DNA from: Limnohabitans lacus
GTDB lineage: Bacteria; Pseudomonadota; Gammaproteobacteria; Burkholderiales; Burkholderiaceae_C
Length of the DNA: 64,000 nt
NCBI RefSeq assembly: GCF_030053395.1
Contig: NZ_JASGBH010000001.1
Coordinates: 248,001 to 312,000 of the forward strand
Direction: 5' to 3'
The position numbers and the translations under genes were made by a program. Each line of letters begins with the position of its first letter. Positions within the stretch are counted from its first letter, which is position 1. The notes under the pieces are model-generated. The model was given only the letters and a program-made list of their open reading frames with translations. It searched no databases and was not told the DNA's origin. Shown in pieces: positions 57,571 to 60,291 of the stretch.

Positions 57571-59022
57571 ATGCGCCAATTTGACGAGATGTACAGCCGC
57601 TTGCCTGCTGCGGGCGATGCGGGCGAGGTGAGAAAACACTACGAGGCTTATGCCCGTTGGTTGCAGGCGCAAGACCCCCAGACCATGGCCGCTCGCCGCG
57701 AAGAAGCCGAGATGATCTTTCGCCGCGTGGGCATCACCTTTGCGGTCTATGGTGACAAAGACGAAGACGGCTCGGGCACCGAGCGTTTGATCCCTTTTGA
57801 TCTGATCCCCCGCGTGATCGCCGCCCAAGAGTGGAAGAGCATGGAAGCCGGTTTGGTGCAGCGCGTCACGGCGCTCAACCGCTTCATCCACGACGTTTAC
57901 CACGACCAAGACATCCTCAAAGCGGGCGTCATCCCGCGCGAGCAGATCGAAAACAACGCCCAGTTCCGCCCCGAAATGGTGGGCGTGGATGTGCCCAACA
58001 ACATCTATTCACACATCAGCGGCATCGACATCGTGCGCGCCCCCGACAGTTCGGGCAATGGCGAGTACTACGTGCTCGAAGACAACCTGCGCGTGCCCAG
58101 TGGCGTGAGCTACATGCTGGAAGACCGCAAGATGATGATGCGGCTGTTCCCCGAGTTGTTCAGCCAGCACCGCGTGGCCCCGGTGGCGCACTATCCCGAC
58201 TTGCTGCTGGAGACCCTGCGTGCCAGCAGCCCCGCCACCACGGCCGAGCCCACGGTGGTGGTGCTCACGCCCGGCATGTACAACAGCGCTTATTTTGAGC
58301 ACGCCTTTTTGGCGCAGCAGATGGGCGTGGAGCTGGTCGAAGGGCAAGACCTGTTTGTCAAAGACAAGTTCGTTTACATGCGCACCACACGCGGCCCCAA
58401 GCGGGTGGACGTGATCTACCGCCGGGTGGACGATGACTTTTTGGACCCCAACGTGTTCCGCCCCAGCTCGACCCTGGGCTGCGCTGGCCTGATGGAAGCT
58501 TACAAAGCGGGCCATGTGGCGATCTGCAACGCGGTGGGTACCGGCGTGGCCGACGACAAATCGATCTACCCCTATGTGCCCGACATGATCAAGTTCTATC
58601 TGGGCGAAGAACCGATCTTGAAGAACGTGCCCACTTATCAGTGCCGCAAACCCGACGACCTGCAGTACACCTTGGCCAACCTGAAAGACTTGGTGGTCAA
58701 GGAGGTGCACGGCGCAGGCGGCTACGGCATGTTGGTCGGCCCGGCCTCCACCAAAGAAGAAATCGAGCGCTTCCGTGGCGCCCTGTTGGCCAACCCCGAG
58801 GGCTACATCGCGCAGCCCACCTTGAGTCTGTCGAGTTGCCCCACCTTTGTGGACAGTGGCGTCGCGCCACGGCACATCGACCTGCGGCCCTTTGTGCTGT
58901 CTGGCCGCACGGTGCAGATGGTGCCCGGTGGCCTCACGCGCGTCGCGCTCAAAGAAGGCTCTTTGGTGGTGAACTCGTCACAAGGCGGCGGCACCAAAGA
59001 CACCTGGATATTGCAGGACTGA
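57571..59022 (+). CDS. Circularly permuted type 2 ATP-grasp protein
   Basis: A 483-residue stand-alone ATP-grasp ligase. MRQFDEMYSRLP, then FAVYGDKDEDGSGTERLIPFDLIPR, VYHDQDILKAGVIP, VLEDNLRVPSGVSYMLEDR, LTPGMYNSAYFEHAFLAQQMG and VVKEVHGAGGYGMLVGPAS are hallmarks. It is 17 bases upstream of the alpha-E minigene and paired with the full alpha-E gene, the standard two-gene arrangement. AGGAG lies 9 bases before the ATG. The amidoligase role is predicted; product unknown. Confidence 0.9.
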   Translation: MRQFDEMYSRLPAAGDAGEVRKHYEAYARWLQAQDPQTMAARREEAEMIFRRVGITFAVYGDKDEDGSGTERLIPFDLIPRVIAAQEWKSMEAGLVQRVTALNRFIHDVYHDQDILKAGVIPREQIENNAQFRPEMVGVDVPNNIYSHISGIDIVRAPDSSGNGEYYVLEDNLRVPSGVSYMLEDRKMMMRLFPELFSQHRVAPVAHYPDLLLETLRASSPATTAEPTVVVLTPGMYNSAYFEHAFLAQQMGVELVEGQDLFVKDKFVYMRTTRGPKRVDVIYRRVDDDFLDPNVFRPSSTLGCAGLMEAYKAGHVAICNAVGTGVADDKSIYPYVPDMIKFYLGEEPILKNVPTYQCRKPDDLQYTLANLKDLVVKEVHGAGGYGMLVGPASTKEEIERFRGALLANPEGYIAQPTLSLSSCPTFVDSGVAPRHIDLRPFVLSGRTVQMVPGGLTRVALKEGSLVVNSSQGGGTKDTWILQD

Positions 59023-59038
59023 AAAGGGGAGAACACAC

Positions 59039-59170
59039 ATGCTTTCAAGAACCGCCGACCACCTCTTCTGGATGTCCCGCTACATGGAGCGGGCCGAAAA
59101 CGAAGTTTCGCCAAAACACGGCCGAGCGCGCAGCGCTTGCGGGGTTTTCGGCCTCAAGGGAGTTATCTGA
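59039..59170 (+). pseudogene. Alpha-E N-terminal minigene (duplicate 5' end)
   Basis: A 43-codon open frame whose first 21 codons encode exactly the start of the alpha-E protein that follows (…LFWMSRYMERAEN). The two DNA copies (59039-59101 and 59170-59232, 131 bases apart) differ at several third positions and in the Leu-Ser-Arg codons, but every change is synonymous. After codon 21 the product diverges (EVSPKHGRARSACG...VI) and stops at TGA overlapping the ATG of the real gene. It has its own ribosome site (GGGGAGAACACAC). It may be the remnant of a second alpha-E gene, or a leader peptide for translational coupling. Confidence 0.6.
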
Positions 59171-60147
59171 TGCTGAGCCGTACCGCCGACCACCTTTTCT
59201 GGATGTCCCGCTACATGGAGCGGGCCGAGAACACCGCAAGGATGTTGAACGTCAGTTACGAAACCTCCTTGCTGCCGCAATCAGCTGCTGCCGTTGAAGC
59301 CGGTTGGGAAGGCATCTTGTCGATCAGCGAGTTGCTGCCGTCCTATTTGGCTTTGTACAAAACCATCACGCCACGCGATGTGATGGCTTTCATGGTCAAG
59401 GACGTGGACAACCCATCTTCGATCATCTCGTGCCTGCGCGCCGCACGCGAGAACGCCCGTGCGGTGCGCGGGACCCTGACCACCGAGGTCTGGGAGACGC
59501 AAAACCAGACCTGGCTCGAAGTCAACCGCATGCTCAAGAGCGGAGAGTTCGAGCGCGATCCGGGCCAGTTTTTTGAGTGGGTGAAGTTCCGCTCGCACCT
59601 GTCACGCGGCGTGACGGTGGGCACCATGCTGATGGACGAGTCGCTTTACTTCATGCGCATGGGCACGTTTTTGGAGCGGGCCGACAACACGGCGCGTTTG
59701 GTGGATGTGAAGTTCCACGCCATGAACAACGACTTTTTTGGCGCACCGCAGTACGGCACCTCCGAGGCCGAGAGCACGCAGGAATACGACTTCTACCACT
59801 GGAGCGCGATCTTGCGCAGCGTCAGCGGCTTTGAGGTCTACCGCAAGGTGTACCGCGATGTGATCCGCCCCGAGCGGGTGGCCGAGCTTTTGATCTTGCG
59901 CTCGGACATGCCGCGCTCTTTGCACGCCAGCCTCAATGAGGTGGTGTCCAACTTGGCGCTGGTCTCGCACGACCGCGAAAGCGACACCTTGCGCCACGCA
60001 GGCCGTCTGCGCTCAGAACTGGCCTTTGGCCGCATCGACGAGATTTTGGCGACCGGCTTGCACGCTTACCTGACGCAGTTTTTGGACCGCGTGAACGTGC
60101 TGGGCGGCCGCATCAGCCGGGAGTTCTTGATGCCGTCAGCGGCATAA
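59170..60147 (+). CDS. Alpha-E domain protein
   Basis: A 325-residue all-helical protein of the alpha-E family, function unknown but almost always beside a circularly permuted ATP-grasp ligase. It begins with the family signature SRTADHLFWMSRYMERAENTAR, then HLSRGVTVGTMLMDESLYFMRMGTFLERADNTARLVD, with repeated ERA(E/D)NTAR motifs. The start overlaps the minigene stop (TGATG), so translation is likely coupled. It ends the plus-strand locus; a transglutaminase and a protease often follow elsewhere but are absent here, where a REP-like repeat and xthA follow. Confidence 0.9.
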   Translation: MLSRTADHLFWMSRYMERAENTARMLNVSYETSLLPQSAAAVEAGWEGILSISELLPSYLALYKTITPRDVMAFMVKDVDNPSSIISCLRAARENARAVRGTLTTEVWETQNQTWLEVNRMLKSGEFERDPGQFFEWVKFRSHLSRGVTVGTMLMDESLYFMRMGTFLERADNTARLVDVKFHAMNNDFFGAPQYGTSEAESTQEYDFYHWSAILRSVSGFEVYRKVYRDVIRPERVAELLILRSDMPRSLHASLNEVVSNLALVSHDRESDTLRHAGRLRSELAFGRIDEILATGLHAYLTQFLDRVNVLGGRISREFLMPSAA

Positions 60148-60193
60148 ACCGTCCTGGCGCGAGAAGTTAAGCAGGCACAGCTCTTGGCGTGCA

Positions 60194-60284
60194 ATCGTCG
60201 TTGCGAGCGAAGCTTGGCAATCCAGCTGCGCGCTTGACGAGACATCTGGACTGCCGCGTCGCTGCGCTCCTCGCAGTGACGATT
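60194..60284. repeat. Long imperfect inverted repeat of the CGTCATTGCGAG... type
   Basis: ATCGTCGTTGCGAGCGAAGC-TTGGCAATCCAG at 60194-60225 faces CTGGACTGCCGCGTCGCTGC-GCTCCTCGCAGTGACGAT at 60247-60284. This matches a repeat widespread in proteobacterial intergenic DNA (consensus recalled from memory). It lies between convergent alpha-E and xthA genes. Confidence 0.75.
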
Positions 60285-60291
60285 TGACCGA

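What the first reader, a model, noticed from the sequence alone, without database searches (positions are those of the whole stretch)
59039..59232. Minigene repeating the alpha-E start with synonymous-only differences, coupled to the real start
Seen: the first 63 bases of alpha-E are duplicated 131 bases upstream; both copies encode the same 21 residues although the DNA differs in at least the Leu, Ser, Arg, Leu and Glu codons (codons 2, 3, 4, 9 and 20). The minigene has its own ribosome site and a TGA overlapping the ATG of alpha-E. Random decay of a pseudogene would not leave only silent changes, so either the copy came recently from a diverged alpha-E homologue, or the peptide sequence itself is kept, for example as a leader peptide that gates alpha-E translation.
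Basis: partly seen in the sequence, partly recalled or inferred. Interest (0 to 1): 0.75.

Follow-up and report, generated by a model that had tools for sequence, protein, structure and literature searches.

The report
Self-copied leader minigene before alpha-E
A bacterial gene is preceded by a short, translatable copy of its own beginning plus RNA hairpins, and the same arrangement recurs in related bacteria, so it looks like a kept translation leader rather than junk DNA.

Summary
The duplicate is real, as described, and not a one-off: I read 62 such units at 51 alpha-E loci of 50 genomes. Lower bound in the family: 26 of 399 genomes, 16 of 141 genera; a strict pattern found none among 203 alpha-E genomes of other families. 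A typical unit is a forward copy of alpha-E's first 20-24 codons interrupted by a hairpin, a 20-nt inverted copy of codons 24-18, then a second ribosome site and the real start. In 62 of 62 units the minigene stops within -18..+11 nt of the next start. The hairpin, and pairing of the inverted arm with the gene's own codons, covary. The silent differences in the window fit import of spacer plus gene start from a diverged relative: the sister genome has an empty site. Best reading: a translation-coupled leader born from fold-back duplication and spread by recombination. Function is inferred; folding does not support simple masking of the ribosome site, and in the window's own genome the arm is not predicted to pair with the gene.

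The parts
57571..59022 (+). upstream gene, circularly permuted ATP-grasp protein
   Evidence: Pfam PF14403/PF04174; ORF
59025..59031 (+). ribosome-binding-like site of the minigene (AGGGGAG); same place and letters before the single alpha-E start of G017
59039..59170 (+). minigene: 43 codons plus TGA that overlaps the alpha-E ATG (TGATG)
59039..59101 (+). copy 1 of alpha-E codons 1-21 (native-type start; same peptide as the main start, 5 silent codon differences)
59096..59109 (+). hairpin 1, short form in this genome (GAAAACGAAGTTTC); longer covarying stem in other genera
59110..59152 (+). hairpin 2 (fold-back palindrome)
59135..59154 (+). inverted copy (16 of 20 nt here) of main codons 18-24; the pairing arm
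59156..59162 (+). ribosome-binding-like site of alpha-E (AAGGGAG)
59170..60147 (+). alpha-E gene (PF04168), 325 codons
59222..59241 (+). alpha-E codons 18-24, the possible partner of the inverted arm
59103..59313 (+). probable imported tract (spacer to about codon 48), all-silent excess divergence from sister G017; ends approximate

Best explanation
A translation-coupled leader cassette. Seen in the sequences: a forward-inverted-forward duplication of the alpha-E start leaves an open minigene, a covarying hairpin, a 20-nt inverted arm able to pair with alpha-E's own codons 18-24, and a second ribosome site; in all 62 units read, the minigene frame ends at the next start. Inferred: ribosomes enter at the native site, translate the minigene through the hairpins, stop at the overlapping or adjoining stop/start and re-initiate on alpha-E, so alpha-E output depends on leader translation, and extra tandem units may tune it further. 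Also inferred: existing cassettes spread between alpha-E genes by ordinary homologous recombination, which imports spacer plus gene start and leaves the recipient's own start as the minigene; this would have produced the silent differences in the window.
For: 62 of 62 units (51 loci; tandem units not independent) have the minigene stop at -18..+11 of the next ATG; the two other frames do so in 8 and 6 of 62; shuffled spacers in 27.0 +/- 3.6 of 51 (maximum 36 in 500 shuffles) against 51 of 51. 53 of 62 units have length 2 mod 3; in the two genera searched by homology all six lengths seen (101, 125, 140, 149, 152, 206) are 2 mod 3. Arm:main helix, 50 loci: 96.4% of cells paired, 33 cells changed on both sides against 10.9 +/- 2.3 in shuffles, 0 of 500. 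The arm fits the main gene (mean 10.31 of 11) better than copy 1 (8.06) (the arm's place was chosen by its fit to main, which favours main). Hairpin 1: 8 of 9 pairs with changes on both sides; covariation score reached by 0 of 500 shuffles. Many same-type orthologous pairs differ by 1-6% in the spacer where fourfold sites of the gene differ by 8-30% (exceptions below). A covariance model of the spacer gave 24 strong hits (E 5.4e-9 or better) in 22 genomes: in the 15 filled ones, at the alpha-E units, and none in the 7 empty ones (only the best 150 first-look candidates per genome were scored). Import; G373a and G508 have identical main codons 2-19 although fourfold sites of the body differ by 0.257.
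Against: No expression data. Shuffling the arm does not ease opening of the alpha-E ribosome site (10.7 against 10.5 kcal/mol, p 0.45), so the arm is not a simple mask. In the window's own genome the arm is predicted to pair with main at only 0.02, and 10 of 51 loci lie under 0.1. Presence is patchy: 8 of 17, 22 of 47 seen, 2 of 62 matching genomes in the window's genus, so it is dispensable. 50 of 62 stops lie at +7, which follows from alpha-E beginning ATGCTGA once that frame is open. Only two arm:main pairs have changes on both sides; shared ancestry inflates the counts. Some same-type pairs show little or no slowing of the spacer (G373b/G526 0.228 against 0.223; G373b/G538 0.217/0.273; G521/G520 0.043/0.052; G402/G333 0.087/0.133). 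A unit whose copy 1 had lost more than 7 of 19 residues or shifted frame inside them would have been counted as empty.
Confidence: 0.55

Rival explanations
1. A mutational by-product without function: fold-back template switching at codons 18-24 makes the duplication, later switching and gene conversion keep arms and copies matched, and cells tolerate it.
For: Forward-inverted-forward anatomy; at least 6 and 7 presence/absence changes in two genera; copy 1 carries replacements in several units; conversion between copies is suggested (L221 main start reads as a mosaic).
Against: Frame and stop position kept in 62 of 62 units; spacer often slower than fourfold sites; a G.A mismatch inside the arm helix stays in 40 of 50 aligned loci (alignment), which palindrome correction should remove.
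Confidence: 0.27
2. A leader peptide whose amino-acid sequence is itself the signal, being the alpha-E N terminus.
For: Copy 1 differences between orthologous units are mostly silent: 38 silent to 8 replacing codons in 11 independent pairs.
Against: Conversion from the main gene and import can produce the same bias; replacements at conserved positions (W to R, R to H, Y to C, L to W) occur in units whose frame stays open; the tail peptides differ widely between genera.
Confidence: 0.08
3. A selfish mobile element that homes into the alpha-E start and regenerates it.
For: Spacer plus start moves as a block (G373a/G508; paralogue-type pair G547/G516 spacer 0.85 against body 0.74).
Against: No strong copies elsewhere among the scored candidates of 22 genomes; homologous recombination through the flanking alpha-E sequence suffices.
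Confidence: 0.08
4. Assembly artefact or one-off accident in the window's genome.
For: None beyond its rarity in the window's genus.
Against: Same structure in 49 other genomes, including ones held as a single contig.
Confidence: 0.01

Closest known systems
Termination-reinitiation translational coupling (overlapping or adjoining stop and start; recalled)
   Same: Upstream frame ends at the next start codon in 62 of 62 units.
   Different: The upstream frame is a truncated copy of the downstream gene's own start, with conserved hairpins in it; coupling itself is untested.
Translational attenuators with leader peptides (erm type; recalled; starts of the abstracts of PMC8274638 and PMC9178857 seen in a listing)
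   Same: Short leader ORF, alternative pairings possible, gene start downstream.
   Different: No known inducer or stall site; the arm pairs with codons 18-24 inside the gene rather than with its ribosome site; the leader is a duplicate of the gene start.
Small inverted triplication / tandem inversion duplication (PMC13334657, start of abstract in a listing; bacterial work recalled)
   Same: Forward-inverted-forward order of one short segment.
   Different: Here a unit of 101-206 nt, present in many species at one gene, with a kept reading frame.
REP/MITE-like palindromic repeats (recalled)
   Same: GC-rich palindromes between genes.
   Different: Not seen as a dispersed repeat: strong matches at alpha-E only.

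Membership tests
Translationally coupled leader ORF | Upstream ORF stops at or near the next start | tested here: met
   62 of 62 units, -18..+11 nt
Translationally coupled leader ORF | Downstream translation depends on upstream translation | not testable with these tools
   needs reporter fusions
erm-type translational attenuator | Mutually exclusive RNA pairings that hide or free the ribosome site | tested here: inconclusive
   Arm can pair with the hairpin 2 left arm or with main codons 18-24; opening the alpha-E ribosome site costs 10.5 kcal/mol with the unit against 8.1 with upstream removed, but shuffling the arm does not lower it (10.7)
erm-type translational attenuator | Ribosome stalling on the leader by an inducer | not testable with these tools
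   no expression data
Small inverted triplication / tandem inversion duplication | Forward-inverted-forward copies of one segment | tested here: met
   arm is the reverse complement of main codons 24-18 at 18 of 20 positions in G552 (sequence) and 16 of 20 in the window; copy 1 is forward
Dispersed palindromic repeat (REP/MITE) | Many copies per genome at unrelated sites | tested here: not met
   24 strong model hits in 22 genomes, at alpha-E units; other hits E 0.006 or worse; 150 candidates per genome scored. Hairpin 2 core pattern with up to 3 mismatches: 4 of 14 genomes, one site each, at alpha-E
Rfam RNA family | Match over the family's gathering score | tested here: not met
   six loci, E up to 1: two matches, both below gathering score and both on other parts of the loci
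Decaying pseudogene copy | Frame lost over time | tested here: not met
   frame open in 62 of 62 units recognised, though copy 1 residues do drift

The most novel reading that the evidence does not exclude
A gene-made regulatory cassette: fold-back duplication of a gene's own start creates, in one step, a leader ORF, a structured RNA and an arm that pairs inside the gene; the cassette is then kept by selection, multiplies in tandem (1-3 units) as a translation tuner, and passes between species and between alpha-E paralogues by homologous recombination.
Probability: 0.4. Interest if true: 0.8.

Novelty: new variant of a known kind. Interest (0 to 1): 0.62.

Why it matters
If right, it shows how a single replication slip can turn the start of a gene into its own leader and RNA control region, and that such a product can persist, multiply and spread across a bacterial family. 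It also offers a natural set of filled and empty sister species in which gene-start duplication can be tested directly, and it warns that short ORFs repeating a gene's start should not be dismissed as annotation noise.

Tried and rejected
Whole-gene replacement by a diverged alpha-E: rejected, because the sister G017 aligns at 94-95% on both sides and only spacer to about codon 48 is anomalous. Dispersed repeat: not supported by pattern or model searches. Similarity of the spacer to an acnB-like start in seven fetched loci (L167-L170, L176-L178; gene named from recall): a match of about 30 bp, left as probable chance. Rfam: nothing at the unit. General start duplication in other genes: scan of the window plus 20 stretches of G301 (464 kb, 1388 long frames, spurious ones included) found only alpha-E, an antisense echo beside it and one internally repetitive protein. 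Simple masking of the ribosome site by the arm: not supported. Papers: searches listed nothing that, from titles and abstract starts, describes this; one passage of PMC3710099 was read and did not help. The library is open-licence only and the lists were capped, so absence in print is not shown.

Rows dropped: G427 was left out of alignment A1 (50 of 51 loci; arm not clearly identified, though it is). A2 holds 37 and A3 36 of the 46 spacers of 74-95 nt, chosen for one hairpin type; the window's and G100's spacers are in neither, so the hairpin 1 test does not include the window. L231 (cut by its contig end) was left out of the tree. 17 of the 47 genomes were not read beyond the match table. 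Not every weak match was read.

Full report
What is there. At 59039-59170 lies a 43-codon frame whose first 21 residues equal those of alpha-E, which starts at 59170. Five codons differ, all silently. The stop TGA shares a base with the alpha-E ATG. Upstream is a circularly permuted ATP-grasp gene; the main frame is Pfam Alpha-E.

Relatives. Of 90 genomes searched in the window's genus, 62 matched the start region, and only G000 (the window) and G100 showed a second match at copy 1 (only 7 candidates per genome were scored and 30 loci fetched). Named relatives are Limnohabitans and other Comamonadaceae records; none of the 80 best named loci shows a second copy, but that list may leave out records near the window. 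The sister G017 has a single start, identical to copy 1 over codons 1-21, with the same short intergenic gap. G017 aligns to the window at 94-95% on both sides of the unit. The main gene of the window differs from G017 at 20 of codons 1-48 and 8 of codons 49-110, all silently. So the native start seems to survive as the minigene, and spacer plus main start look imported. The donor was not found.

Recurrence. A search with the spacer alone matched 36 of 399 family genomes; many, not all, of these sites are alpha-E start duplications, from several genera. A strict degenerate pattern for two starts in tandem hit 21 of 399 genomes in 14 of 141 genera, with no hit of the reversed control pattern. 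Five more genomes (G247, G349, G404, G408, G427) come, so the union is 26 of 399 genomes and 16 of 141 genera. This is a lower bound: the pattern needs a well-kept copy 1. In two genera the unit is common: 8 of 17 (all 17 loci read), and 21 of 47 read in full plus G513 cut by its contig end. The same pattern hit 2 of 399 genomes of the order, both of this family. In one search, which shows the same handles, alpha-E is present in 215 of 399, of which 12 are of this family; so 0 of 203 alpha-E genomes of other families match. Duplications with a more diverged start would be missed.

Anatomy. Units are 101-206 nt long, most often 149 (23 of 62) or 140 (21 of 62), and come in one to three tandem copies. 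In the typical unit copy 1 is followed, after codon 20, by hairpin 1, then a segment like codons 21-24 forward, then the reverse complement of codons 24-18 (18 of 20 positions in G552; 16 of 20 in the window), then the second ribosome site and start. Some units depart: seven end in a GTTYGAGGC-type or otherwise mismatched arm (G440, G354, G136, G479, G285, G409, G408) and G517 lacks hairpin 1. The forward-inverted-forward order is what a fold-back template switch gives (mechanism recalled; related work seen in a listing). Two alpha-E genes of one genome can each carry units (G373; G526).

Evidence of constraint. (1) Frame: the minigene stop lies at -18..+11 of the next ATG in 62 of 62 units; the other frames do so in 8 and 6 of 62; spacers shuffled except for their last 14 nt keep it in 27.0 +/- 3.6 of 51, at most 36 in 500 trials, against 51 of 51. 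(2) Hairpin 1: 90.6% of cells paired, 8 of 9 pairs with changes on both sides, no shuffle of 500 as high in covariation score, and the slid versions far lower (window not included). Hairpin 2 upper stem also covaries; its lower stem is broken at one pair in 16 of 36. (3) The arm is complementary to main codons 18-21: 36 of 51 loci are perfect over 11 nt, mean 10.31 against 8.06 for copy 1, and 526 matches in all against a mean of 478 when mains are dealt at random (maximum 496 of 2000). The arm's place was chosen by fit to main, which favours main in these comparisons. On 50 aligned loci 96.4% of cells pair and 33 cells changed on both sides against 10.9 in shuffles; these changes sit at two pairs, the third bases of codons 19 and 20; the number of such pairs and of pair types is no higher than in shuffles. 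(4) In the two genera codon 19 is GCA in 26 of 29 filled loci (the other 3 GCT with a matching arm) but in 9 of 17 empty ones (Fisher p 0.010); phylogeny is not corrected for. (5) Many same-type units in sister species differ by 1-6% in the spacer while fourfold sites differ by 8-30%. Over all 36 pairs the figures are 0.111 and 0.215, over 11 independent pairs 0.106 and 0.167; some sister pairs carry units of different type, and a few same-type pairs (G373b/G526, G373b/G538, G521/G520, G402/G333) show little or no slowing.

What speaks against. Copy 1 is not strictly conserved: L171, L179, L213 (outer), L222 and L226-L229 have replacements. Over 11 independent pairs copy 1 shows 38 silent and 8 replacing codon changes, main 45 and 0; conversion between the copies can mimic constraint. 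The unit is gained or lost often (at least 6 changes among 17 loci, 7 among 29), and a few empty loci keep what look like remnants of the spacer end (L253, L240, L241). In predicted folds the arm pairs with main at 0.90 or more in 32 of 51 loci, but under 0.1 in 10, among them the window at 0.02. The alpha-E ribosome site costs more to open with the unit (10.5 kcal/mol) than with upstream sequence removed (8.1) or in 14 empty loci (7.6), yet shuffling the arm does not change this (10.7). So the helix is supported as a structure in many relatives, less so as a mask, and not in the window itself.

Spread. G373a and G508 have identical main codons 2-19 and spacers differing at 3 of 83 positions although fourfold sites of the body differ by 0.257; G511 and G515 are close relatives with different unit types. 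G547 and G516, of two paralogue types, have spacers at 0.85 and bodies at 0.74 identity; over 1275 pairs spacer and body identity correlate only moderately (Spearman 0.44). Homologous recombination with a filled donor explains this and the window: it brings spacer and start, and leaves the recipient's own start as copy 1.

Conclusion. The finding is real and larger than described. It is best seen as a recurrent translation-coupled leader made from the gene's own start. The parts, the frame rule and the covarying pairings come from sequence; dependence of alpha-E on leader translation, and any signal, are inferred. I saw no description of it in the listings (open-licence library).

Noticed in passing
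60186-60290: A palindromic block after alpha-E (CGTCGTTGCGAGCGAAGC...GCTCCTCGCAGTGACG) that looks like a common intergenic bacterial repeat (recalled).
   Followed up: no
L014, L015, L017 upstream of alpha-E: In some Limnohabitans the ATP-grasp/alpha-E gap is much longer (about 80-140 nt) with other palindromes, and alpha-E starts with a different set of silent codons (CTGAGCCGC instead of CTTTCAAGA).
   Followed up: partly
L152 (G404) and L232 (G509): Units of two genera share an extra stretch of about 72 nt with two more hairpins and about 3 differences, although the gene bodies are about 81% identical.
   Followed up: partly
L172 and L174: A different hairpin-rich repeat containing GCGCGCAGCGCTTGCGGGGTT in two other genera, not at alpha-E.
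   Followed up: no
L220, L225, L229 against L221, L223, L224: Close relatives carry two different unit types at the same alpha-E site, and the L221 main start looks like a mosaic of copy 1 and main.
   Followed up: partly
G000 C4:58686-58762 and G440 C3:326193-326274: Weak spacer-model matches away from alpha-E (E about 0.006-0.008), probably chance.
   Followed up: no
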